A stretch of DNA of 64,000 nt from assembly GCA_903813345.2 (NCBI GenBank), contig CAIIXF020000005.1, positions 33,545,375-33,609,374 on the forward strand, read 5' to 3'. Below are positions 3,346 to 62,100 of this stretch, piece by piece; within the stretch, counting starts at the first letter, position 1, and each line of letters opens with the position of its first letter. This stretch comes from Owenia fusiformis (lineage: Eukaryota; Annelida; Polychaeta; Sabellida; Oweniidae). A program made the position numbers and the translations under genes. The notes beneath the pieces were generated by a model that searched no databases, was not told the DNA's origin, and saw only the letters and a list, made by a program, of their open reading frames with translations.

Positions 3346-3600
3346 GGTGGTCAAAGATTTGTCCAGCTTAGGGGAGCATGCTATTTTTCATTAAAAAAAC
3401 ATTTTTAGCTCAAATATTTTGTCATACCAAAGAAAATAACCTATCCCATGCAATGGGTATATTATTTGCGGATAACCTTCACTTCTCTTTGAAGTCCAAT
3501 AACACTAAGAGTAAGATCTATTGAAAACGGCACCAGAGTATCACACTCTAAAATGTACCATTTCTTTTGATGGCACGATATAATGAAATGATAATATTAT

Positions 3601-4210
3601 AAGTTATTGAATGATTTGAAGTCCAATACAGTAGATATTCTGCTCGAGAAATTCTGTTTTGGCAAGAGACGGAGTCGATACAGGATATCGAGACAGAATA
3701 TATCCTGTATTGCACTTCAAATCATTCGATAACGTTTTTATCGTGTGGTCCTCTGTATTGCTACTGAGATTGTCCCTTTGTTACCAATATTTTATGTATT
3801 GCGACGGATATGATCGATGGGGACAATCTCAGTAGCAATACAGATAGGTACAGCAGAAGAACTGACCAATCAGAGGGCTTCATTTTACAGATCATACGAT
3901 GATGTAAGTTATTGAATGATTTGAAGTGCAATAAAGGATATATTCTGCTTGAGAAATTCAGTATTGGAAGGAGATGAAGTCAAGTGCCAATACAGAATAT
4001 CGAGACAGAATATATCCTGCATTGCACTTCAAATCATTCAATAACATTTTTATCGTGTTATCCTCTGTATTGCTACTGAGATTGTTCCCTCCGTACCAAT
4101 ATTTTCTGTATTGCGACGGAGATGATCAATGGGGACAATCTCAGTAGCAATACAGATTGGTAGAGCACAGGAACTGACCAATCAGAAGGCTTTATTTTAC
4201 AGATCATACG
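3601..4210. repeat. Tandem pair of about 305-bp units built of two hairpins each
   Basis: Two copies in direct orientation, both starting AAGTTATTGAATGATTTGAAG (3601 and 3906). Each unit has one foldback whose arms are TTGAATGATTTGAAGTGCAAT and its complement, and a second whose arms are CTGTATTGCTACTGAGATTG and its complement. There are no coding features. The paired hairpin layout suggests a duplicated foldback element. Confidence 0.7.
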
Positions 4211-4860
4211 ATGATAGCATATGTTTTCAGCATAACTCTGATGGTTTTAATAAGATCTATTGGATCTTTTTAATTTTTTCTATAAAAAAATAATGTTTAT
4301 TTTTTTTGTCCAGCTTGGGGGAGCAGTTTTGTATTCTACGTTTGAAATACAAAACTGGTCCAAGCTGGACAAACAAAGATACAATGAATATCTTTCCATT
4401 GGGCATTAAAGACTTTCCTTTGGTGGGGAACAATGAATTTAATTATATTTATGCAAAATTGATTCTACTTTTAAAGTAAATGGAATTGTTTAATTAATGT
4501 ATTACATAAGTGTATTTTGGAAATGAAGGATGCATGTAGGTTGTAATTATAATATATTCACCCTTGGTATACGCAGCTAACGAAAATTGACCGGTACGGG
4601 TCAAAAGCTGGACCGGTACGGGTTAACGGTTTTATTTGATTTTAAAATAGCCATAACTTGCTCAATATTGACTTCCTCGTGTCTAATTTGAAATATATGA
4701 TGCCTCCCGATGCTTTTAAGTACCCCAATTTTTTACAGATTTTTAAACGGACCAAAACTCTCTAAATGCGCATTTATGCTCTTTTCTCTCGAGAACGACT
4801 GTCTCATTTTCACGATAACTTTTATTTAGTACTTCTAACATATCAGATCTATTTTTCCCC

Positions 4861-23100: not shown

Positions 23101-26100
23101 CCTACCTATGGGCAATCCTTTATAATTTTTTCATCCTGAATGCCAAACACTTATCAGTTGAAGAAAACTTTTTAGAAAAAAATTCAAAATGGCCTCCTTA
23201 CCCTTTACCAAAAATCCAAAAAGGCAGTCAGTTTGAGATTTTCATATTCATAGAATCTTTCCTGAAAATTTGAAATCGATCCATCAAACAGTTGGCCTTG
23301 AAATGTGTAGACAAGACTTTACAGATGAGATTTTAGGACAGATAATCCAAAAATATCTCTAAATTATTCAGTTCTAGATTTTCATTTAAAGAATCATCCC
23401 TGAAAATTTGAAATTGATCTGTAAAGCAATTTACTTCAAAATCTGATAAGTTTACGCCATTTTGGATTTTCCATCTTAGAACCTATTATGTAATTCATAT
23501 TAGCCTCCTCAGGGAGGTTCATAGCCTTGCCCAAGTCGATATTTTTTACTTATGTGATCTTGAATTATTACCGCCTTGTACAATCCAATGCATCATCGCT
23601 GATATTATGCTAAGTTATTTAGCGGTTTCGAGATTCCCATAATACCTACGCTGTCTGGAGTATCGGGAAACCTTATTGATTGACAAGATCGCATGGACAC
23701 GACATGTGACTTCAGGCTGATTGACCAATCAAAACATTATCAGGTTGACCTGCTTAAACAAAGCAAACTACATTGCCTTGCCTGGGACTAGCTCTTTGTG
23801 CATTTTGTTCATCGCGAATTCAGTTTTGAACCAACATCGAATTGCATGATTTAATTTATATTAATGACTGCTAACATTCCAATGTACATTTAATTACATA
23901 ATATATAGTAACTCTAAAGAAACACTCGATCAGATCATTGAATTTCAAGTCCTAGTCGATCTGATTCAGTGATTGAATCTCAGCCTAGTGTTCGATCAAT
24001 TGAATTCAGCGATCGTTTCAATGTTTCTTGTTGAAATCTTCTCACCTCCGGGTATCCGACCAATGCTCCGCTATCCACTTAACTCTGATATTTATCTGAT
24101 AAAATATTTGTATTTTCATGATGAATTCGTGCAAGATTTGTTCGTGGAAAGTCCCGGTGAAAAGTGTATTTGTTTTTTACCATGCATAATAATGAGCTAA
24201 CGCGTCAGGGCTGTCGTTGATTGGTCAAATTTTACCGTCATAAACATTGGATCGGTAAAGCACATGGCTTTCTCTTGGGTACAAGGCGGTCATAATAGAA
24301 ATCAAGATAAGTAAAAGAGACTGACTTGGGCAAGGCTAGGAGGTTCATTGAAATTAAATTTAAATGTATTAGTTTTGGGTATGTTGGCTAAATTTTATGT
24401 AGCTCTGAAATCTTGCCTGTCAAATCTATTTTGTATCAGTTTCAAGAATAATTGATAAATTGATGAATGCTGTAGAGACAATATATTTCCCCCTGCCATT
24501 AATTGTAAATGCCAAACACTAACTGCTGAAGACTAACCCACAACAAAAAGGTTGAAGACTATAACAATATGCTACTTTTGGTAGTGACATAGTAAAAATG
24601 CATATACCAGTGTCTATTAATACTGTCTTGATTTTAGGCTATCAAGACATGCAAAACAGGCAGTCGGTGACTCAAAAGGATGAGGAAATCAAATATCTAA
24701 AGAGTCGTCTGAACAATAACAACAGGAATAATGATGATAGATTTGATATATTAGAGGTATCATTTATTCACTCCACAGAGTAGCAAATCCCACCAAATAA
24801 AACATATTTTTCTTATTATTGGCCATCTTGAAAATTCCTTCTTGAGCAGAGCTTGTTTGTCCCTAGGCATCAACATATAAAATGTAAACCATATCCATCA
24901 ATTAGCATTTGAGTTATCAAAGATTACATTCCTTTTACGAAAAATGTCAGTCATTTTGAAATTCAGCTGCAATTTTGAAAATCTTTCTCGAACAGAGCTA
25001 CTGTGTCCCTCAGCATCAGCATATAAAATTCAAAAAAAAATTCATTCACTGCTATTTGAGTTATCAAAGATTACATTTTTTTAGGAAAAATGGCCCCCAT
25101 TTTGATATTTAGCAGCCATTTTGAAAATTTCTTCTTCAGGGTAGCTTCTTTGTCCCTAGGCATCAGCATATAAAATTTAAACCAAATCCTTCAACTAGTA
25201 TTTGAGTTATCAAAGATTACATTTTTTTAACAAAAAATGGCCCTTCCTGGTACCCCTTCCTTAATCCCAAGAATTTTCTCTTTGAGGAATTTCCCATAGT
25301 AATCCAATGATGGGGACATTGGTAAATGTCTGCCTAGGGGGGGGGGGGGCATACTTTTGGGACACCCTGTACATTTCCACTGAAGATATTCCTAGAATAA
25401 TATCATAAAAGTATACAAAAGGCACTTTGGAAATATCAAGTATAATTCTGAAATAAATTATTAAAGCACTTAAGAAGTATGGTGTTATCATTACCTTTTT
25501 GTCCAATGCTTTCCACAAAGTAGCTTTGGAGTTTTTTAGTGAATTTCATTTCATTTTTAGGAGAAGATGAATAAAATCTTTGCAAAAAATATAGAAATGG
25601 AGGGAGAAGTGAACACAATCAAACAAGAGAATGCTGATTTGGAAACAGAACTAAAAAACACGAACGCAAAGGTATTAGACTTAACAAATGAACTCAAATC
25701 AACTGAAACAGAGTACCGTAATTTTAAAACAAAATTCAAAGCAAACGAAGAAGAAATCTCAGACATGAAAATCAAGCTTGAAACAGTAAGAGAGGATCAT
25801 GCAAAATCACAAGCTGAAATGACAGAGAAACTTCAGACATTAGAAGCACAGAAAACAGGACTTGAGGTAAATTAATCCAAAAATGTATATTAAAACAAAA
25901 TAATAAACTACTCATCTATCGATAATGTATAATACCAATATCATACTATACTGTTGATTTTATACTGGTACCCGATTTTTGTAACATTTTTACATTGTAC
26001 ATCCTTAGATTAATTGTTAATACCATTTTTATATACCTACATGTAACATAATATAAGTGTTTTCTTTTATATGTAGTCTAGTTGTCATTTTAATGATTTC

Positions 26101-29100
26101 TGTTAAACCGCAACATATACCCACTAGGGTGTCTAGCGGCTTGTTTTTATAGTGTATATTATATAAGAATTATGAAATAAATAATTGAATTGAAATTAAT
26201 AAACAAAAACAGAAAATTGTTTTTATCATAAAACTATAGTAAAACTAAAAATACTATTTTAAATGAACGTTCAGAAGCAAACTGAGAAGCAGCATAATCT
26301 GTTCAAATATCATAGGAACAAAATGTTGCCAGGGACATAGCTAAACATTTTAGATGTAGTGTTATGCAAATAACACAATAGTGCTATGAGTTGGTAGAGG
26401 ATGAGCAGCTCTCATCAGGGTACTTGTGTGAAGCTTTACCTAGAGCACTGAATCATTGGAGGCAAATCTGGGTGTTATCAATAATATGGAGGTGCTTATG
26501 TTATTATTCTTTGCATTTCAGGCCACAGTTCATGAGTTGAGACATGAAAATCATGACATGAAAGAAGAAATAAAAACCCTTGAAAGTAAAAACAACAATG
26601 CTGCTTCAGAGCTTGGCAAAATGCGAGATTATGGCACATTGAAATGGGTGGTAAAGGGGCGAAAACGTGCGAAGAAATTGGCTGAAACATTACAAGACAA
26701 AGACTACAAGTACAGTACAGGATCTTCAGCTTTTTATTGTCCAATCTCTTATGAGCAGTAATAATTTCATGAATTTCCTATTGTGTGAAATAAGGAAATC
26801 CAAAATAGTCGTCACTTTTAATCCCAAAAATTATGTTTTACCCCCACCCCTGGTGATTATTACTTTTGATCCATGGGAGGGTTGGGAAGTTGACTAAATT
26901 AAGAATTACTTTAAGTGCTGATCTGGTCAACATAACAAAGTAAAAATATATGATTATAAGGCCTGTTCATGGAAGGATTGGGAAACTGACTAAATTAAGA
27001 ATTTGCTGTCCTGATTAGTATAACAAAGTAAAAAAAAAATGTACATACCGCCTTATTTCTGTAGTTTGCTTGGACAAATGTTTGAAAACAGCTCACAACA
27101 TACTCTGCTTTTTGAGAAAACTGAAAAATAACAAGTGAAATACAATGATAAAGTACAAAATAATACAACATAACCAAGATGCTATAAGATCCATATATTT
27201 CTTTTTACATAGCATAACCATATAACATAACAAGGTTACAAAATTTATACTTACAGAGACTTATATTTCAGAAAGAGAATCTCTGTTTATGTACATATTT
27301 CAGTTTTCTAAGAATTATCAACTAGCAACAAAGTTCAATGATGTATTTAATTACTGAGATTGTCAATTTTTAGAGCAAATAGTTCCCACTTATGTCATTT
27401 TACAGTATTTATCCAGGGGAGCTAAGCGCCAAACACTGTATTCAAGAAAATTGTAAAATTATTTTGTCATTGTAATATATACCAGATTAGATGACCATGA
27501 CCTTATTAATGAATCACCTGTGTTATTGGTAAGTACCATTGCTCTTTTCTTGTATTTTGTAGATGTATATTTTCTACAAATTGTAAAATTGTTAAGTGTT
27601 TATTTGATGTTTATGAAGTCTAAAGTTCAATTATAAAAAAAAAAAAAAAAAGTCTAAAGTTCAATTCACAGTTCAGAAGTTTGCATTGCATGTATGGACA
27701 AATTCAGGACAGTCGAAATGAGCTGTATAATTGATTACCCATTTAAAAGATTACTAGGTGTTGTTTAGAGTCATTTAGGAATACTGTCAAGTAATTGTGG
27801 ACATTTATTGGTATTTATTACTTAAAATTCAAAAAGGTCACATAATAAGAAAACCAATTAATTTGATTAATTTGACATTGTAACCATGTAATTAAGACAA
27901 CACATAAATACTTGGAATTTCAGATTTTTTCTCAAGGTACTTATATAATACATATATTATGAACTTTATATGCACATATCCAAGAATAATATTTACACAA
28001 AATAAAAGTGTACCTTTAAGAAAAGAGTGAAGTTAAATATGATATTAAGAGACTGAAATTATTCAGCAGCATACAATGTATTTAACTTTCAATTCTTATC
28101 ATACTGGTACACAAAAAAAAGCAATCTGCCCTTTTATGTTTGTTTTATTGCTCTTTCTACTCACATGTACAATGTTGACAAAGTCATTCTCCCCAAGTGT
28201 ATCAAGTAGTGACTTGACAGAGGTCTTCATTAACTGTAGGGCTTGACCATGGGTACTGCCACTCCTGTAGGAAACAAATATCAATGAATGTTGGGTACAA
28301 TATTGTTTAGGGGAAAGGATTAGAATTCTATTTTGCTAAGTTAAAAACACTTAAAATGGGACATAAAGAAACACTAATGTAATTTCAATGCCCCTCACCT
28401 TAAATGAAGGGGTTCAATATTTTTGCAAGGAAAATATGTATTAATATTTTGACCCAATCTTTACCACTATCAATTGACCAATATTTGAATACTTTGTTAC
28501 GATGAATACAGTATATACAGGTAAAAACAAATGTGATTTCCATGCTAAATGTTCATAATGTATCACACTTTAACTTTCATTCAACTCAATACAAAAATTT
28601 TATTTCGATACTTCAAGTTTCAAGGCTATGACACCCTAATTTAACCCACACATCAAAAGTTGATTTCAAATTAATAGGCCTTTTATTCAAATTACTTGCA
28701 GAAAGATTCCAAAAGATTTTTAGATAGCAAATTGGATATTTTCTGTACATACGTGTCTATGAGGATTAACATATCTTTAGGAGAGCTGGCCCCCTGAGTG
28801 TACCAAGGGCGGCGTCTGACATCATACAAGTCAACACCCTCTCTGCGCCATTTTGATGCTACAAATAGATTGACAAACAATACAAAATGCTTGACATTCA
28901 ACTTATATCTTGAGAGCTGGCCCCCTTGATGTACAAAGGTCATCTGCCCACGTCATACAAGTTAACACCCTCTCTGCGCCATTTTGATGCTACAAATAGA
29001 TCGACATACAATACAAAATACTTGACATTCAACTTATATCTTGAGAGCTGGCCCCCTTGATGTACAAAGGTCATCTGCTCATGTCATACACGTCAACACC

Positions 29101-32100
29101 CTCTATGTGCCATTTTTATGCTTCAAATATATCATCATACAATACAAAATATTTTACTTTATTACTAACATGTGCCCATTCAAATGATATTCTAATTTAT
29201 TATTAAATTAACTGCACCAACACAGTGTTATATTCTCTCCAGTAAGCATCTGATCAGATCAAGGGAGATACACAAATGTAAAGAATAAACTGCTATGTGT
29301 TCAGTGTCAACCATGTGGAAAGTGCAGAAATATGTTTTTCCAAGAAAACGTTTTGCTTACAACGAATAACACATATTGCAAAATGAAGGCACACAGTGTT
29401 AGATTCTTAAACTGAGACTTAATAATTTCAGTATACTACTCAGACATTAGTATTATCTTTAAAATTCACAATGACTTAAAAGACTAAATTGTCCCCTATT
29501 GTTAGTTGATTGAAAATATACTATCACAAATCAAACTGTTATTAAGTTAACAAAGGCACACTTTTGTATTTATATCAATATCAAGGAAATTGAAATAAAT
29601 TGAAAAAAACAAAAAAACAAAAACAAATCAAACTTAGCAAGTAGGTACTGAGTAATCTACCTGGATAGTTTCTCATGAAGCCTTGCTGGCTACCAAAATA
29701 CTGCCACAAGAGGTCAGGGTAGTCTTCAGCATTCTTCTTCCATTGGTCCTCAATTGCTCGCGACCACTCGAGGCCATTCAGTATCTCTATGTCTGAAACA
29801 TATATGTGCTGGTTTTCAATATCGATTGTAAAAGAATGCAACTTTCACTATTTGTAGAGACTACATGTGTGAATGAACATATTATGAATGCTAAAAAACA
29901 AACAAATTAATGTTTCTCGTACCATTGGCTAATATTCAATTGCAATGACAAACTGACATCAAAAATCAGATGTCAAACCATTAGCCTATTGAACTCATTG
30001 AATATTTGTTTAACAAAAAATTATTGGTAGTATCGTTAATGGTTAAACACTCCAATGCCATCTATAGATTCACAAAGAAATTCATTCTCTAATGCACTTT
30101 TTTCAGAAATGTGTGAGAATTTGTTGAAATACATGATTTGTAAAATAATGTTCTGCATTCAGTTTGAACTATTTTTTAGAAAATTTTATCATAAATAGCT
30201 TGATTATAATTAACTTCATGAAATCCAATTTAATCCTCATACATTAGCAAATACTTAATAAACAACAATAGCTGTATATATACTGTATAGTGTCTGATCA
30301 AAAATATAAATACAGGTACAACATAGTACAGATTTTAGTCTCGCACCAAATCTCTGGTTAACCCCATCCCAGTCAAAGAGAGGAAATTGGCATTGGGGCA
30401 GAGGGGCTTGAGACAAGACTATATATGTATTCACTCTTCAACACAGTACTCTACTTCTCTCTGTATTAAATTTCATTATATGTGAAAATACATTTTATAT
30501 GTGAAAATACAGTATATTTATAAAAATACAATGTATATCCCTACAAATTCCTAAATATTGTAACAGTGTAACAATTGTATTAACATTTTAACAATAGGAA
30601 AGCCATGAGAAGATTGATGTCAGATCAGAGACTTGAGCTACTCTTCTAGCCTAGCCCCCCCCCCCCCCCCCCATTCATACAAAATGTTAAAATGAAAAGA
30701 AGAGTGATAATACACTTTTTTATCAAAAAATTCAAAATCGCCATAATGTAATTTACCCAGCAGTTTATTTCAATCTAGTACACAACCAGGTATACTTTAT
30801 TTGTTAATTATGTCTCTGATGCAACATAAACCTTTTAATAGCTTCTCTTTATAAAACATTCAATACAACAGATTGGGAACATTGTGTGTCATCACCTACA
30901 AACATTATCTAAAGAGTTAACTGTTTAAAACTTCCAAACAACAATCATGTAAACGATTTTCCCCATTTAATAATTTCACAGAATAATTACTATATCTAGT
31001 ATGCATTCACAAAGGATGGCTCACATTCTGAGTGACACTGTTCATGATATACAGTGTACAGGGTGTCCCGAAAGTATGCCCCCCCCCCTAGGCAGACATA
31101 CACCAATGTCCCCATAGTATGTATCATATATCATTTTAAAGCTTGTCCAAAGTTACATTGATTTGCCAAGTATCATGGTTCAATTCACAAACGGGAAAAA
31201 ATTACACACATTTCAAAATGTAGTGTTTTACCAAAATTAAAGTTTAGTTTTACACAAGATTAATAGTCGCTGTGTCTCTCTTGGCCATGTTAACAGCAGC
31301 AATTCTTTCCAGATATGACCTTAAATACACTGCAAATAGGGGTATGGCACTTAATAATCCTCACAAAACCTTTTTAAGGCATTTTAGAAGAGTTTCCTTG
31401 GAGTATCTGCCCTTACAGACCTCTCTTTACAACTCAATATCCACCCTCTCTTTAACGATAGCACCCATATTTTTGGTCACATTCAGGTTAGCGGTGTTTC
31501 CAGGATACTGATTTTAACTTTAATTTTGGCCAAACACTAAATTTTGAAATGCCTATAACTTTTTCCCATTTGTAAGTTGAACAATGATACTTGGCAAATC
31601 AATGTAACCTTGGGTGAGCTTTAAAATGATATATGACACATACTATGGGAACATTGGTGTATGTCTGCCTAGGGGGGGCCCCATACTTTCGGGACACCCT
31701 GTATAGTGCATTGGACACTTTTTTATAGAAATAAGCAGAGTTAGTAGATAAACTATGAGGAAAATCTCATGATTGATATGAAAGTTCTAATAGGAATGGT
31801 ATTTAGACAATGTACTGATACCCAGGGGATCATTTAAGCTTCAGTGATAACTATATTACAGCTCTGAATAAATTGGTCTGCAACTGAATAAATGGCTATC
31901 CAAACACTGTACAAACACCCAAATTGGGTATCTAGACAAGCTGTATAAATGCCCAGAATTGGGTATCTAGACACTGTATAAATACCCAGAATAACACATG
32001 GGGTTGGAATCTACACACTGTAGGAACAATCTGGATGGGTATCTAGACACTGTATAAACACCAAAAATGGGTATCCAGACACTGTACAAACACCTAGAAT

Positions 32101-38100: not shown

Positions 38101-41100
38101 GTATTTTCTTTTAAATTAAATTGTACCATTTGCATTATAAACACCATACATAAGCATTAATTTGAGGCATTAATTCATGATTTACAGGGTTTTTAACGAG
38201 GGAGTCATTGTTGATATGTCTCAGAGAATGTTCACCTTTCAGAAGGACTAAGGTATTCTGCTTTGAGAAACATTCAACTTGAGAGGTCTGCTTTTAGGGG
38301 CATTCTTCATAAAATATACAGTAAAAACCATATTTAGTGAACACCTCTCTCTAGTGAACACCTGTCTCTAGTAGACACCCTTCTTCCACATATACTCTAC
38401 TGACTTATGTATAAATTACCCTCTCTGTAATAAACATCTACCAACACTGAACATTTTTTCTCTTCAATATACACAGGAGTTACTGTAATCAATAGAGTTG
38501 CTTAGCGAGGATCAAATATCTGGCGAGGCAAATAGGTGAGGCAAATTTAGATTGCATATTACTACCTTAGGACTTCATTTCAACAGTTTTATTTGACAAA
38601 ACATCTGAACATACTTCTGTAAACTTTTGGTGAGGCATTGCCTCGCCTGCCTCATGCCTAGCTATGTCTTTGACAGCAACTCAGAGAGGTGTTCACGTTC
38701 GCAGGTATCCCTGGACATAGAAGAACCATAATGATAAGATCAGTAGAAGCTTTGAAGCTAGATCCCCAATGTTCATTAGGCCATTGCTGACAGTAAGTCA
38801 TTTGATTAAGGTATATCTATAGATTCGTTGATTGCTACTTTGCTGTTGTCGTAATGACAAAATGCATTAATACTGAATCCGGGGAAATTATTACCTAACT
38901 CTCTCCAAGATTCACAAGGTTATAGTTATGTCAACAGAAAATCCATTCATAAAGCAAGAACACATATTCATGGATACAGTTGCTGTAATATGATTTATGT
39001 ACCAAGTCTCCTGAGAAATGGAAAGATTAGAGAGCTGACATACAATTGACCAAATGTCAATACTGTGAGATCTTTGCCCATTTCCATCGTCATTCATCAA
39101 CAGCAATTTCTTAAACATTCATGTTGAGCACTGAATCAATTTCTTAGCTTCGAAAATCTAGGAAATTGCCAAGATCATCTTGAACAGCTTTGAGCTTTGG
39201 CCAATGATTTCACATCACATATCGCAATATTTACATACAAGGTTTTTGAACCTCTAATCAGATTATATCAACAGGCAACACAGTGGCAATTCTAATTGAA
39301 TAACATGTTTATGTGTGCTATAATGAAACAGTCCCTTTCTTTCCTTGAATTAATATATAAAATAAAAATAGAATAATAAAATAAGTTTTTCTCCATTGAC
39401 CCTCTTCAAATTTGATTTCCTGACTACAATGGTATGTCAGAAACTACTGCAACTGGACTGTGCTGAATAAATGGACAATGCTTAGATGATGGTCAAATTA
39501 TTCAACCGTCATCTACAAAGGATGGAAAAACAGAATATTTCTGTGTACATTGAATTTTAATGAATAGAATGTAAATTATAATAAACCAGAACAACGGCAA
39601 CGCCAAAGCGTAGCGAATCCCATCGAACAGCCATGGATGGCATTTTTGCAAACAAAGTATATAGCAAAAATGGCAGCAATTTTTCAAAATGGCCGCCTTC
39701 TACCAAAAGTGTCATTAGACCATGTGCCATGCTTATAGTATTCACATACCAAATATGAACAAAATCGCTCTACTACTTTTCAAGTTATAGTAAAATACGT
39801 TAAAATGGCGGCCATTTTTCAAAATGGCCACCTTCTACCAAAAGTGCCATTAGACAGTGTGCCGTGCTTATAGTATTCACATACCAAATATGAACAAAAT
39901 CGCTTCACTACTTTTCGAGTTATAGTAAAATATGTTAAAATGGCGGCCATTTTTCAAAAAATTTTTCAAAATGGCTGCCTTCTACCAAAAGTGTCATAGG
40001 ACAGTGTGTCATGCTTATAGTATTCACATACCAAATATGAACAAAATCACTCCACTACTTTTCGAGTTATAGTAAAATATGTTAAAATGGTGGCCATTTT
40101 TCAAAATGGCGGCCATTTTTCAAAATGGCCGCCTTCTACCAAAAGTGTCTTTAAGCAGTGTGCAATGTTTATAGTATTCACATACCAAATATGAACAAAA
40201 TCGCTCCACTACTTTACAAGTTACAGCAAAAATCGTAAAATAATGAGTAAAGGCCGCCATTTTTCAAGATGGCTGCTATGTGCTTCTTTAATATCTACAT
40301 TTCTAGCTTTATTAATGTCCTTTATAATTTTTTTACATCTCAAACATATTGCTATTACAGTTTTACATATTGCACCTAAATTACTGTAAATTCGGCACTA
40401 AAATGGCCGCCATTTTGAAAATCGGCTTTCGAGCAGAACTTCTACCCCCATAGGGTATATGTGTACAAAATATGAACAAAATCGGGCCAACAGTATTTGA
40501 GTTATTGCCCGGACGGACGGACGGACGGACGGACGGATGTACGTACGGACGGACGGACGTACGTACGGACGGACGGACGGAGGCGTTCCCTATATCCCTC
40601 CGAACTTCGTTCGATGGGATAATAATCAACAGCCATGACATGAGTCTCACGATTTTGAAATGAAAGATCATTGGTCAGTAGATCAGACTGAATGTCCCAT
40701 CACGACAACTACGATTACCGCCAGATGAAATGTTTTGCAATCAACAGACCCTTATAAGATCAGGATGAACTACTTCATCATGTGAAAATTGAATTTCAGC
40801 AAGCTTAATTGAAACACACTCCCATATTATTGAATCATGAACATGCAATTTGGTAGACAGTATATTTCACTCTACTTTGATATCAAATCATATTGGGGAA
40901 TTGAGATGTAAAGAAAGTCTATTAAATAAACTCAAAATATGATTTATTACACTTATGGCTAAGTACTATGGATTCACTGCTTATTGAAATGTTGGAACCT
41001 TTGGCAGAATGACCCTCCTTTTTCACGATTTAGAGTTTGCATTGTTGCTCTCAATCAATGAAAATAGTAAGCGTAGAAAGAAGGTCACTGTTGGTTTTCC

Positions 41101-44100: not shown

Positions 44101-47100
44101 CAATTTATATCCTTTATCCTTAATTAGATTCCATTATAATCACCCCTAGTGTAATTTAGAGGAAGTAATTGGAAACGTAATTTGCAAGGGGATAGATATA
44201 TTTTGGCTATTCTTATGAGACTATTTGTTGCAAATTATTCAGAGAAGTGGCGTTCAATTGTCTGAAAACCAAATTGAATTCTATAATTACTTCCCATGAG
44301 CATTAAAACGTCATTCCAATCATGAGACAAAGTCACAAAAATCAGATATAAGCATTCAATATATAGCATTCACTGATGCATGCGATTAATATTTCTTTTG
44401 CCGAAGCCTTGGAATGTGCAAAACGAAAATTAAGTCAAAATAATTACTGGATTATCTCCCAAATACCTCTTTAGTTTAGATATCCTTAAGTTGATAAAAT
44501 ATGTACCTCTTTTTCAGTTTTTTTAAACAAAAATATTCTGGACAGCTCAGTAATAGTGACTCAACTCCCAGAGCAATTGAAGTATGATGTTTTTGGGGAG
44601 AGTGTTAGGTTGATACTGAATTTGTGATAAAGCATGGGCTTCAGTATTCTCAAAGGGATTTTTTCTTCAAGCAGATGCAAAGTTTGTATAATCACAATTC
44701 TGATCAAAGACTATAACAAACTAACAATTAGCTCTCTTTGTAAAGCAAAGTCAAAAAGAAGCAGAGTATAAAAAATAAACAATCAGACAGCTGGTATTTC
44801 AGCTAAGATTACATTTTCATGGAAAATTGCTGCCATTATAGATTGAGCGACCATACTGAAAACAAATGCAATTCTGAATTGATGATTTGCGATCACTGGA
44901 TGAATTCTATCATGTAGTGACGTCAAAATTAGGCCACACTGCTACAGCTTTTTGATTTTGAGAGATTATCTTCTGTATTTCGTACTTTATTGATTTATTT
45001 TTCACGAAAGTGTTCGATTTGACTAGATCAACATTCATTCTAAGCACATGCCAAGTCTAAGATCTTACTGACATGATTTAGATAGCGGTTAAGCTTATAG
45101 GCATCGATGTTTTGTATGAATTTCACCAAAACTTTACACATATAAAGATATACTCATGATCTAGTCAAATCGGCATACCTGGTAAATATCCGACCAATGA
45201 TTTTCATAAAGAAACAATAACATATTTAGCGCAAAACTGCCACATGTCCGCCATTTCGTCTCTCCATCATGTCTAATATCATTTCTATATGACGTCACAC
45301 CAATAAGACGAAATACATGACAACAGTATCCATAAACAAAATACCTGAATTCTGATCGCAAAAGGTCAATTCAACAGCTATCTTGAAAATGTCCAATTTT
45401 AGCTGATGTTCTTAGGCAACCGCTTCTAAAATTGAACCATCTACAACTTGTCTTTGAGTTCTGAGAGATAATATCTTTTACAAGAAATAGTGGCCATTTT
45501 TATCTAAGTGACCATTTCAAATATTCCTGCTCGAGCAGAGGTCCTAGTAAGGCCCATGAGGTATCAGCCTTAAAATTTGCACCATATCCATCAACATATA
45601 TTTGAGTTAATGCTCGGACAGACATACAAATGAACAGACAGACAACTTTTCTGTATCCCAACTCAAACTTTGTTCATTGGGATAACAACAATTAAGTTAT
45701 TTACCTTTACACTTTATGAAACATTTACATGGCATTTACTTATGGTACTGACTTTTGATTAAATGCATTTCATCTCATCAATATTTCATTTATTTGATCA
45801 ACATACAAAGGAAAACTAATTTGCACTTATACCCGATGCAATTTTAGACATCCTCTTGTTGATGTTAGAACAATGTTTGATCAGGCGGGAATCAAATATT
45901 CTCACGTCATAGTCATTTCTAGCATAATAAAAAAACTCTTAAGAGAATTGTTATTGATGTTTCCAGCGAGTTTCCCACTTCCAGGCCCGTATCTAGGGTC
46001 CAAAATTTAGTGAGAAAAAAATAATTTTACAAATCAAATTGTTGGTTGATGAATTGAAAGAGTAGCTACTGGCTTTGGGAGAAAAGAAAACATTAAAAAT
46101 GAGACAAAAAATTCCAACTGACATAAACAGGTTTCTAACAAAAATTTTAACTTCCAAAAAATAATTCAGAAAATGAGATTTTCCAAAGTTGATGCCACCA
46201 ATGTAAGTTAAGTGACAACAGATAAATATGGAACATCGACATGATGTGTCAAATGATCCAATTTACGTGGAATCAACAAGGCAGGATTTTTTTCATATAT
46301 TACATTTTTTTATCATAAAAAACACCGGGGTTCATTTGATCATAAAAAACACCGGCGTTCATTTGATTTCATTATTACCTTGCCATTATTCGGTAACATT
46401 ATTCAGGAACTACTTACAAGTGCTGAATTTTGAATCAGGACATCAAAAAATCATTCAAACATACTATTGTCTACCAATTTGAATGTCACATTGAGAGTTA
46501 CACAATGCAGTTCTTTGCATCTTATTAATAGTTGATGAGCACTCCTTATATGGTCATTCAAGCCTTATATGGACAAAACAATGTGATTAGAAAATGGAAA
46601 TCAGAAAATCATTCAAACATACTATTGTCTACCAATTTGAATGTCACATTGAGAGTTACACAATGCAGTTCTTTGCATCTTATTAATAGTTGATGAGCAC
46701 TCCTTATATGGTCATTCAAGCCTCATATGGACAAAACAATATGATGAGAAAATGGTAGAGGAAACAGCAATTTGTTCCAGATATAGAAAAGTAAATTATA
46801 CCTTACCATAGAAATATTCTAACATATAAGTACATCTAGTGATTAGCCTTTTACAAATGTTCAAATCATTTCTGCAAACATCTTTTTATAAAAGGTAAGG
46901 GATCATCCTGTGTATTATCATCAAAACATCCACCTAATTATGAATTTATTATATTAATTTAATTTCAACTTATTCTCCTCCATACAAACATCCAATGCCA
47001 GTACATCAATGCTAAAGTTACCAAGTTAATACCAACCAAATGAAACTTGCTCAATTTTACTTCATCTTACCCTAAAAGAAATTCCATTGTTTGGGTATAT

Positions 47101-53100: not shown

Positions 53101-56100
53101 AAGGCTGTGATATCTCATGATTAGAATTGTTTTATCTTGAGCACTTACTATTAAAGACTAACCTAGTTTCCTATACCCAGTGGAGTTTTCTAATTTTTTT
53201 TCAATAGTTTTTTCACATTTTTAAAAAAAATCATTTTTTTATAAAAATTTTTCCAAAATTTTAAAATTAAAAAAAACTCTACTTGGCATAGAATAAAGCA
53301 TGTTCTGTGAGAGTTTCTAAGATATCTGATCACAATTTACTCAAGCAGTCAACAAGACACACAGTGATAAATATCGCACTTTGAAGAGCAAACTGGCCAC
53401 CATGCAATTTAGCCAGCATGGCCAAAACCTAATCAGACCTTGGCACTAGTCTGCTCTTGCATCTGTAAACATTTCAAGTTGACAAGGTTAGCGGTTTTCC
53501 TGCAATTTTGATGACAAGAATTTATTTGTAGTCTTGAACTTTGGGAAAATTTAGATAACATCATTTGTGACCTAGTTTAATGACCTTGACTTTTGACCTT
53601 GAAAATTTCACTTTTTCAGACCTCAGTAGGTCTTTTGTAATTAAGCTGACCTAAATTTAAATCCAAAATATCAATTTAGAAAATCAACTTTTTTGACCTT
53701 TTCAAGGTCACTGAAGGTGAATGAAAGGTCAAATCTGAAATCTAAGGTCAGATTTGAACTTCTGAGAACTTGTAGATGTTTTTAAAAAAAAAAATTGGTC
53801 AATTTGGAGCAAGTTGAAAAATTCAAAATGGCCGCCAAATTCAAAAATTCAAAATGGCCACCATGTAATTCAGCCAGCATACCCAAAACCTAATCAGATC
53901 TTGGCAATAGTCTGCTCTTGCATCTGTAAAAATTTCAAGTTGAACGGATAAGTGGTTTTCCTGGAATTTTGATGACAAGATTTGTTGAAAAATTCAAAAT
54001 GGCCGCCACATAGTTTACCCAGCATGCCCTTAACCTAATCAGATCTTGGTACTAGTCTGCTCTTGCATCTGTAAAAATTTCAAGTTGAACAGGTAAGCAG
54101 TTATCCTGGAAATTTGATGACAAGATTTGGTTTATGTCCCGCCCGCACGCCCAAACGCCCGCACGCCCAAACGCCCGCCCAACAGCACAAGACGACGACA
54201 ATATAGCACTTTTTCAAAGTGCGATAATAATAATAAGATAATGCATTTAAATTTTTTAATATAAGGAATAGAATACAAGTTATTCAAAAGAAGCACATTT
54301 TCAATATACATGTAAAAACAAAATATTTTCTGACACAACCACGGGTCAAATCTGGGGTCAGAATCAGGGGTAAACGAAATGTCCCTTAATTCCTGAGGAA
54401 CAAAAAAAGTTCAGAAATCAAATGGAAGAACTATAGAAAATGAAGGACCCACGGTCCTGTGCTCACACAGTTTGGAACCTTCAGAGGAATGTATATACTG
54501 ACTTTCAAACAAAAATATTGATTTGGATTTGTAGTCTTGAACTTTGAGAAACTTAGATAGCACAGTTGTGTGACCTATTTTGATGACCTTTGACCTTGAA
54601 AATTTTACTAATTCAGAGCTCAGTAAGGTCCTTTGTGAATAGCTGACCAAAATTTACATCCAAAAATCAATTTGAAAAATCAACTATTTTGACCTTTCGA
54701 AGGTCACTGAAGGTCAAGTAAAGGTCAAATCCTAAAACTAATGTCAGATTTGAACTCCTGGCAACTTGTAGATGATTTTCAAAAAAAATTTGGTCAAATT
54801 GAAGCAAGTTGAAAATTAACTTATTTTTACTGTTTTTTGACGTCAAATATCTCAAAAACGGTAAAAATTTGATGCTGACATATATGGAGCAATATGTAGG
54901 GAATGCTTAAATTTAGTAATGATGTAATTCATTGCAAGAAATGATCAAGTATAAGGCAAACTTTGAGAAACTTGTCAATCACAAAACCTGCCATTGACTT
55001 TATACATGAGAAAGTTTCCTGAAAATGACGAAGTCCTACTTTTTGTCAAATTTTATAGAGTAAAAACCAAAAACTGTAATTCCAAGAGCTTTGAAATCTT
55101 CAGACGACATAAGTTGCATATACAGCAACTAGTAAAAGTTATTTGAAAGTTCTACTTCAACAAAGTGTCTAGTATTTACAGAAAATTTGACTTTTTGACG
55201 TCAAAATCCGCAATTTCTCGGAAACCGGGCGAACTTGGGAAATGGCGATGATAAGTCAAATAGGCCTGGTCGATCCCATAGGCTCACTGTGTGAGCCAAT
55301 GAGCAGGTAAAATTACATCAAGATTTTAGAGATGAATTACTGTGTCTATATCATCAAAACTTTTGCTTCATTTGTGTATTCTTTCCTTCAGATAAGAGTC
55401 TTACAGTTTATCTTGTAAATCATATTTACCAAAAAATGAGCATCTCCAAGGCTTCATACCAGCGTATTCATGATGCATTTGTCACGAGTTTGAGCTCACA
55501 TTTCACTAAATTGAAGTTAGGGGGATTTGTGATTCAATGCTCTAACTTATACAAAAATGGTGGAACAAATGCAGAATTAACAGCAAAATCACTTTGAATT
55601 TCTAAAGATTTATTTGCCTATGTTGTATTGTATTTTGTTTACCACCAGTGAAGGTAGCTATTACCTCTTAGGCATATCCCGTAATACGGTTGTAATTAAA
55701 CCTGCACATCGCTCCAAAACGCAATCTTGAGTTGTTTCGGGGGTGAACTTTATCATTTTGAGCTTAATGAAAGATTATAGAATGATGAACAAATGGGGCA
55801 AATCTTGTGTACAAAAACTCCAATAAATGTGTCATTACAAAGATTGTTCATTGAATTGCTTCGATTGTCGACGACGATATGATTTTTGGAAGGTTTCTAA
55901 ATTAAGAATTTGACGTCACTTCCGAATTATAGCATTCAACATAAGTAGCGTTTAATTACTTTCATCATTCATAATAAGTTGGTTGCCCTGCGGTAGAATG
56001 CACTCACTTTTTTATTTTTTTTAACTAAATGATTGATATATTGTTGTTGCAATGTGCCATAATCGTACATCGGCAATTTTCATTAGTAAACGTTCTAGAA

Positions 56101-59101: not shown

Positions 59102-62100
59102 GTAAATTCTATTTTTATCGATCCATGAATATTTTCATCACATGTTCATACAAATAACAGTTGCTCATATTCGCAAGTTTTTAAGGAATCAGTCCACTGA
59201 GACTTTCAATATTTCAAGTTTTATTTTTCTGATTTTTTCCATGGGCTTCAAGAAAATCGTACCCAAGAAACACAGGGGCTTGGCTGGAGGGTCGGGCAAG
59301 CCCTCCGATGTGTCTGTACTGATTAAATATTCAAAGGAAGTTGCTTAAAAATCTAAAGAATATGTAGAAAATTGATTCTATGCCAAATCGCTAAATTTAT
59401 TTGGACAAAATTATTACCTGCTCTAAGCTTAGACTACAAATTACTCACTTCGAGAGCCATGTTAGATTTTGAAAAATATGGCTCTCCAACGGAGAAATGG
59501 ACAGCTGAATATTAGTGACCTTTGAAACAAGTTCGTGTATATCGCTTCTGGCAAACCGCCATATTGTAAATGGGTCGAAAAAACATTCACTCGATGAACA
59601 ATTTACAAGTTTGATCGAAAAAGAAGTATTTCAGCGCTCCAATACTTGCACGGATTGATGATACTGATGTAAGACACAGTTAGAGACCAAAAGTAAGCCG
59701 TGGGAAAGCTATTATATCAAAATCCACATAGCTTTCGCAGGAAGTAAACTCTAAAGTCATGTTTGGTACTCAATTGGTTACATGTACAGGGTGGTCCAAA
59801 AAATGGGACACTGGTATTTCAAAAATAAATATTGATTTTCTTGATGAAAACATGTCATATTATATACCAGTGGATAGGGAATTTACTTATCTTTAATTTG
59901 GTATATCATAAGTTCAAATTTATTATAATATCTGTCAACCAGTTTCCGTTATATAAATGATGTCATTTTAGTTTCAAAACGGGTTTTCCAAAACTTGCAA
60001 AAAACAAGATTTTTGTCAACTTAATCTACACAAACAGATGTTCAATATGTCCACCATTTTGATCAATTATATCCCTCAATTTTGGCCTTAACTGGTCAAA
60101 AATATCATTGATATTCTGTTGAGACAATGAATTCCACTTCTCAGCAAGTCTATCCTTAATAAGGGACTGAGTAGATGTAAGGGGTTCATGATAAACCAAT
60201 TCTGTTAGTTCTCCCAATACGTGGTAGTCGTGGACATTGACCTCGCAATATCCAATTATGTTGTTTTTAGACCATTCTGATATGAGCTCATTCTCGAATC
60301 ATTACATTCTCCAACAAGATGGGGCTCCAAGCAATAGAATTCTCAAGAGTGTCAAATGTTTAAAGGAAAATGTGCCTAGATTCATCCCCCTAATCACCTC
60401 CCCCAGATCACACGATCGCCCAACATCTGCCACAACCATGTATGTGGCGAACTAACAGAATTGGTGTACCATGAATCTTACATCTACATGTATTCAGTCA
60501 CTTGAGGGCAGAATTGAATTAATGAGAAGTCAAATTCATTGTCTTAACAGCATATCAATGATGCTATTGGCCAGTTTAGGCCAAAATTGAGGGGTACAAT
60601 TAATCAAAATGGTTGACATATTGAACGTCTGTTTATGTAAATAAACTTGACAATAAAACTTGTTTTTGTAAGTTTTGGAAAACCTGTTTTGAAATGAAAA
60701 TGACATCATTTATATTATAGACGCTGGTTGACAGACTTTCTAATAAATTTGAATTTATGATATGCCAAATTAAAGATAAGTAAATTCCCTATCCACTGGT
60801 ATATAATATGACATGTTTTCATCAAGAAAATCAATATTTTTTTTTGAAATACTAGTGTCCCATTTTTTGGATCACCCTGTATATTCACCCATTTGTAAGG
60901 ATTCCTAATAAAAGGGAAATTTTGCCTACAGTCTGCCTGGGTGCAAAGGAGCTCTTCTAAAGAAGATATTAAGTCCCTCGAGGGACCTGCCTTGGACCAT
61001 CCATATTTGCGATGTTTATAAATGACCTCCCAAACGCCACAAAGAGCAAACTTCTTATGTAAGCAGATGATGCCAAACTGTATGGGAGAGTTTAAGACCA
61101 AGAAGATAAGAAACAGTTACAAACAGATTTGGACAGTTTAACAAAATTGTCAAAAGAATGGCAACTCCCTTTCTATACAGACAAATGTAAGGAGATACAT
61201 TTACTTACGAACAATGAGAACGAAAACAACACCATGAAAAACAAAACTTTGGAGCAAACAACATTGGTTTTCACCAACATGTTGACATACAAGTATCCAA
61301 AGCCAATAGTATTATTGGGACAAAAAAGAGTCCTTTCTCTCATCTTGATAAAACTAACCTTACTACTCCTTAATATAAATCCGTGGTCCGGCCTCACCTT
61401 GAATATGGAAACAGTGTTTGGAACCCTCACACCAGTATGGATATTGACAAAATCAGAAGAGTACAAAGAGCAACAAAACTAGTACCATCATTGAAAGACT
61501 TAAGCTATGAAGACAGGATGAGACAACTAAAACTTCCCTCTTTACTGTATAGAAGTACAAGGGATGACCTAATCCAAATCTTCAAGATTGTCAAAGGTTA
61601 CAACTGGATGCAAATCAGTGACATCGCACAGAAATAAGATAATACCAGGACTAGAGGAAACACAGAAAAATTAAATTGCACATATAGCAGACTTGATGTG
61701 AGAAAAAATGTCCTTGGTAACAGAGTTGTTAACACCTGGAACAGTCTACCCCATGTCATAGATGTTGAAAGTATCAAGTGACTCAAGTCCAGTGAGCATT
61801 AAAACACCCCCCCTAATTATTAAGACACAACAACACAAAAATATCTGGATCATATAGGAAACATCCTTCTTCCAGAACTATTTGTATAAAGGTATAAAGA
61901 TGATTGCTTCATTTCAAAATGGCTGCCATTTTTTGTATAGATATAAGTTTTGATAACATACCATTTATTGACTAAATTAAGGAATTTGGTCATTTAGAAT
62001 TTATGGAAAATCATTGCCTTATGTCCTATGGGCAAAGGACTCAAGAAGACATTTAAAATATGGTCGCTCTTTTCAATAGCCAGTGCCACTATTTTTCGTA

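What the first reader, a model, noticed from the sequence alone, without database searches (positions are those of the whole stretch)
28781..29173. Tandem triplication of an exon 5' end with its splice acceptor inside the alpha-2/delta gene
A 131-bp unit containing the intron 6 end and first 78 nt of exon 7 occurs three times at exactly 131-bp spacing. The copy next to exon 7 still has an intact TTTGTAG acceptor and 15 or so well-conserved codons ([16 protein letters not shown]) before a TGA. If spliced, it would truncate the protein just before the metal-binding site, so it could act as a poison exon or simply compete for the spliceosome. The exon encodes the triple-Arg drug-binding motif, making this a sensitive place for a duplication.
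Basis: partly seen in the sequence, partly recalled or inferred. Interest (0 to 1): 0.72.

Follow-up and report, generated by a model that had tools for sequence, protein, structure and literature searches.

The report
Decayed partial copies of one exon
The beginning of one exon of an animal calcium-channel helper gene, with its splice site, sits twice more in a row in the neighbouring intron, and the extra copies look like decaying leftovers rather than a working switch.

Summary
On the minus strand of an alpha-2/delta (CACNA2D-type) gene, a 131-bp unit (53 nt of intron end plus the first 78 of 106 nt of the exon with the RRR motif) occurs three times at 131-bp spacing. The third copy is recognisable without gaps over 109 bp. 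All three acceptor AGs are present.

The poison-exon reading has no positive support in sequence. It rests on the middle copy's intact acceptor and kept codons, but that half is probably kept because it is young: it resembles the real exon (4/66 differences), while the other half differs from it at 12/43 and from the far copy at 2/43. This fits an old duplication, decay, then one unequal crossover or conversion (p 0.003-0.005 ungapped; 0.11 if clustered changes are merged). The third R of RRR became a stop. No donor was copied. The RNA fold is unremarkable, and with seven long-period arrays in 64 kb an exon overlap is unsurprising (P 0.45).

Against this, the middle acceptor scores no worse than the real one, so some use cannot be excluded; no RNA data or relatives were available. 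Verdict: ordinary relic array, low interest.

The parts
   Evidence: splice sites and frame; part of the exon 6-8 peptide matching solved alpha-2/delta-1 at E 2e-37
28781..28911 (-). repeat copy 1: last 53 nt of intron 6 plus first 78 nt of exon 7 (the working copy)
28912..29042 (-). repeat copy 2: intact acceptor (first exonic base 28989), reads 16 codons then TGA; probable chimera of a copy-1-like acceptor half (28955-29020) and a copy-3-like exon half (28912-28954)
29043..29151 (-). repeat copy 3: decayed, acceptor AG kept as TTTGAAG (first exonic base 29120), stop at second codon
29177..29190 (-). possible displaced end of copy 3 (14-nt match, 12 identical); weak
   Evidence: shuffle p 0.03, random-window p 0.016

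Best explanation
It is a non-functional relic of small tandem duplication inside an otherwise normal gene. First, a 131-bp stretch spanning the intron 6/exon 7 boundary was duplicated; the downstream copy kept working and the upstream copy decayed. Later, unequal crossing over (or conversion) between the two made a middle copy with the acceptor half of the working copy and the 3' half of the decayed one. The gene presumably keeps splicing to the nearest acceptor (28858), giving the normal 106-nt exon; any use of 28989 or 29120 would give frame-shifted transcripts with stops that are probably degraded. Shown: copies, boundaries, stops, divergence pattern. Inferred: order of events, crossover, normal splicing, degradation.
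For: Site pattern: in the acceptor half (66 columns) differences are 4 (copies 1-2), 11 (1-3) and 9 (2-3); in the 3' half (43 columns) they are 12, 12 and 2. Copy-1-only against copy-3-only sites, left 3/8 and right 11/1: Fisher p 0.0028, with the halves chosen after seeing the data; a maximum chi-square permutation that allows for the choice of breakpoint gives p 0.0054. A single crossover predicts similar youth for 1-2 left (6%) and 2-3 right (5%), as seen. Decay: in copies 2 and 3 the third R of RRR is a stop and W is L, while copy 1 keeps the residues of vertebrate alpha-2/delta-1; exon differences from copy 1 fall on all codon positions (first, second, third: 5,2,6 for copy 2 and 5,5,6 for copy 3; counts only, no test). 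Context: 7 arrays of period 100 bp or more (overlapping rows merged; 3,936 bp in all) lie in the window, and random placement of all seven gives P 0.45 that at least one touches one of 8 mapped exons. RNA fold z 0.77, 76 of 100 shuffles fold at least as well. Small tandem duplications are frequent in D. melanogaster populations (as cited in PMC2891723, passages).
Against: The chimera test weakens if clustered changes count as few events: p 0.0098 with an indel-aware hand count, 0.106 with full merging. Copy-2-only against copy-3-only sites (2 against 9) differ only at p 0.065. Three of the four copy 1-2 differences in the acceptor half are shared with copy 3, so a patchier conversion is possible. 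The middle acceptor scores somewhat better than the real one with a 7-site matrix (-1.3 against -3.9), so its use is not excluded. No relative was available to date any step.
Confidence: 0.82

Rival explanations
1. The middle acceptor (28989) works as a regulated non-productive 3' splice site: its use extends exon 7 by 131 nt, meets TGA after 16 codons and sends the transcript to decay, tuning alpha-2/delta level.
For: Intact TTTGTAG acceptor scoring no worse than the real one; the stop replaces the third R and lies before the metal site. A potential donor at 28951 (GAC|GTGGGC, score 1.4) outscores 3 of the 8 real donors (exon 7 1.2, exon 10 -0.2, exon 12 -0.5) and would even allow a 38-nt cassette.
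Against: No copied donor; 31 of 1074 other GTs between 14960 and 34060 reach 1.4 (rounded; the site itself may be among them). The acceptor matrix has little power: 282, 468 and 475 of 957 background AGs score at least as high as copy 2, copy 3 and exon 7. The preserved half is probably just young. An extended exon of 237 nt against 106 nt is less favourable for exon definition (general knowledge). No special RNA fold.
Confidence: 0.08
2. Occasional splicing noise: the extra acceptors are used at a low level without function. This is compatible with the best explanation, not exclusive of it.
For: Acceptor scores of the copies overlap that of the real site.
Against: No RNA data on hand; the nearest acceptor gives the right exon.
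Confidence: 0.3
3. Assembly artefact (false expansion of one unit or merged haplotypes).
For: Exact 131-bp spacing; one sequence only.
Against: Over the 109 alignable columns the copies differ at 16, 11 and 23, more than read error or usual haplotype differences would leave (general knowledge), and copy 3 passes into different intron sequence.
Confidence: 0.03
4. A former full alternative exon (mutually exclusive pair) now decayed.
For: [quoted passage not shown] the term CACNA2D does not occur in its main text).
Against: The exon's last 28 nt and donor are absent from both copies; the three units end at the same exon base.
Confidence: 0.02

Closest known systems
Partial tandem exon duplication (as proposed for intron gain in Drosophila, PMC2891723, passages)
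   Same: Short direct tandem duplication of exon sequence including a splice motif
   Different: There a duplicated proto-splice site makes a new intron inside an exon; here the copies lie in an existing intron, upstream of a working acceptor, and lack a donor
Tandem duplicated (mutually exclusive) exons (PMC9741552, PMC9013439, passages)
   Same: Homologous exon sequence side by side within one gene
   Different: Only 78 of 106 nt copied, no donor, stops present
Poison exons / non-productive alternative splicing (general knowledge)
   Same: Use of the middle acceptor would introduce an early stop
   Different: No sign of selection to keep it and no evidence of use; the simplest use would be an exon extension, not a cassette

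Membership tests
alpha-2/delta (CACNA2D) gene | VWA_N and VWA domains with RRRPWY motif and DxSGS metal site, similarity to solved alpha-2/delta | tested here: met
   D-T-S-G-S read across the exon 7/8 junction. Convincing matches cover only about residues 117-408 of the recalled vertebrate probe
Tandem duplicated alternative exon | Complete second exon with acceptor and donor | tested here: not met
   Unit stops 28 nt short of the exon end; no donor copied
Tandem duplicated alternative exon | Open reading frame in the extra copy | tested here: not met
   TGA in copies 2 and 3, earlier stop in copy 3
Poison exon / regulated non-productive splice site | Used in transcripts | not testable with these tools
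   no RNA data on hand
Poison exon / regulated non-productive splice site | Conserved between species | not testable with these tools
   no animal genomes on hand; one scan of bacterial/archaeal contigs with the 281-aa fragment gave no confirmed relative
Poison exon / regulated non-productive splice site | Premature stop if included | tested here: met
Relic tandem array | Extra copies decay without coding constraint | tested here: inconclusive
   Stop in RRR, W to L, changes at all codon positions point to decay, but counts are small and no formal test of selection was run

The most novel reading that the evidence does not exclude
A recent unequal crossover handed a dead exon copy a fresh working acceptor from the real exon, creating at one stroke a non-productive splice choice that now tunes the level of an alpha-2/delta calcium-channel subunit, with the stop inside its RRR motif and before its metal-binding site.
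Probability: 0.06. Interest if true: 0.5.

Novelty: new member of a known kind. Interest (0 to 1): 0.2.

Why it matters
As a relic it is a tidy small example of how tandem duplication and unequal crossing over can reshuffle exon edges. It also warns that an intact splice site with kept codons in an intron can reflect youth, not function. If the middle acceptor were used and regulated, it would show a one-step origin of non-productive splicing.

Tried and rejected
Whole-genome search: no genome is held for the window (error). Relatives among bacterial and archaeal contigs with the 281-aa fragment: 21 stretches matched a pattern, none confirmed; no animal genomes could be searched and viral contigs was not scanned, so there is no dating. 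RNA structure over 28753-29200: nothing special, z 0.77. Rfam (gathering threshold) and ARAGORN (bacterial code) scans of the window: 0 matches each. Acceptor matrix from 7 other exons: too small, since the real exon 7 acceptor itself scores at background (475 of 957 background AGs score at least as high), so it neither supports nor refutes use. Copies of the unit elsewhere in the window: best other hit 21 bp, E 0.002.

Literature, listings only unless said: CACNA2D with mutually exclusive exons (21 papers, 20 listed); tandem duplication with splice acceptor or partial exon duplication (144 papers, 20 listed); tandem exon duplication (54 papers, 20 listed); gabapentin/alpha2delta/RRR motif/invertebrate (44 papers, 12 listed); six phrases for duplicated splice sites (4 papers). 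From the titles and abstract starts shown I saw none that describes this case; the papers not listed were not seen. Passages were read in four papers: PMC2891723 (12 of 19 places), PMC9013439, PMC8119971, PMC9741552.

The placement test includes the given array itself, ignores selection, and used exon bounds typed by eye, up to 11 nt off those. The output (open frames) was cut and was seen in part.

Full report
What is there. The window is probably animal DNA (GC 0.32-0.36 per 4-kb stretch; the gene below has introns) and carries part of an alpha-2/delta calcium-channel subunit gene on the minus strand. A recalled human-like probe located the exons. I set splice sites for 8 exons between 34009 and 14986; joined they give 281 residues without a stop. 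The fragment matches Pfam VWA_N (E 3e-29) and VWA (E 2e-11). An exon 6-8 peptide matches solved alpha-2/delta-1 chains (best E 2e-37; 13 of 14 matched sequences are named alpha-2/delta-1, the other is VWFA and cache domain-containing protein 1). In mammals the third R of this motif is needed for gabapentin binding (PMC8119971, passages). Whether this animal's protein binds the drug is untested.

The repeat. TRF finds 28781-29151, period 131, 2.8 copies. Each unit holds 53 nt of intron end and the first 78 nt of exon 7. All three units end at the same base of the exon, 28 nt short of its end, so no donor was copied. Copy 3 aligns without gaps over 109 bp; a weak 14-nt match further upstream in the intron (about 29177-29190) may be its displaced end.

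History. Counting sites that single out one copy, the acceptor half (columns 22-87 of the unit, counted from 0 in minus-strand order) has 3 copy-1-only, 1 copy-2-only and 8 copy-3-only sites; the 3' half (columns 88-130) has 11, 1 and 1. The contrast of copy-1-only and copy-3-only sites gives Fisher p 0.0028 (halves chosen after the fact) and a maximum chi-square permutation p of 0.0054; an indel-aware hand count gives p 0.0098, and merging clusters gives p 0.106. Copy-2-only against copy-3-only sites, 2 against 9, give p 0.065. Because copy 1 keeps the residues shared with vertebrate alpha-2/delta-1, the amino-acid changes of the 3' half belong to copies 2 and 3. The simplest history is an old duplication, decay of the upstream copy, then one crossover near 28950 that gave the middle copy a fresh acceptor half. 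Under this history the middle acceptor is intact because it is young. This is the best-supported inference, not a proof: three of the four copy 1-2 differences in the acceptor half are shared with copy 3.

Consequences if used. The acceptor at 28989 gives a 237-nt exon reading [16 protein letters not shown]-stop; that at 29120 gives a 368-nt exon reading A-stop. Offsets of 131 and 262 nt also break the frame. Such transcripts would probably be degraded (general knowledge of nonsense-mediated decay). The best potential donor between the acceptors, at 28951, would define a 38-nt cassette; it scores 1.4, above 3 of the 8 real donors, but 31 of 1074 other GTs reach that score.

Can the sequence say whether 28989 is used? 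No. With a matrix from seven other acceptors the scores are -3.9 (exon 7), -1.3 (copy 2) and -3.7 (copy 3), all inside the background of 957 AGs. Pyrimidine content of the tract is 0.65, 0.59 and 0.47. The result against my reading is that copy 2 does not look weaker than the real site.

How surprising is it? The window holds seven arrays of period 100 bp or more, the given one included. Dropped at random they touch at least one of the eight exons with probability 0.45 (exon bounds approximate). The region's RNA folds no better than shuffled sequence (z 0.77). [quoted passage not shown]

Verdict. The regulatory reading is possible but has no positive evidence here.

Noticed in passing
31049-31244 and 31516-31711: Inverted repeat with 196-nt arms, 88% complementary, 271 nt apart, in the intron upstream of exon 6; pieces of an arm recur inverted at 25310-25373. 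Perhaps a dispersed hairpin or MITE-like element; not identified.
   Followed up: partly
24565-26758, + strand: Several plus-strand open stretches of coiled-coil character inside the large intron between alpha-2/delta exons 9 and 10: possibly a nested gene or a relic. Two pieces were scanned against Pfam; the matches shown (25 of 28, and 10 of 10) are all below the curated cut-offs.
   Followed up: partly
45-1409, 3600-4215, 24828-25241, 39667-40231, 46438-46755, 53843-54129: Six further tandem arrays with periods of 135-347 bp; four of them have periods of 135-158 bp, close to the 131 bp of the given array.
   Followed up: no
61374-61634, + strand: Open stretch that looks like a piece of a LINE-type reverse transcriptase protein (recognised from memory, not searched).
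   Followed up: no
28753-28858: Exon 7's acceptor scores at background level and its donor is CAC|GTATGT (1.2, lower than five of the other seven donors), which may matter for any acceptor competition.
   Followed up: partly
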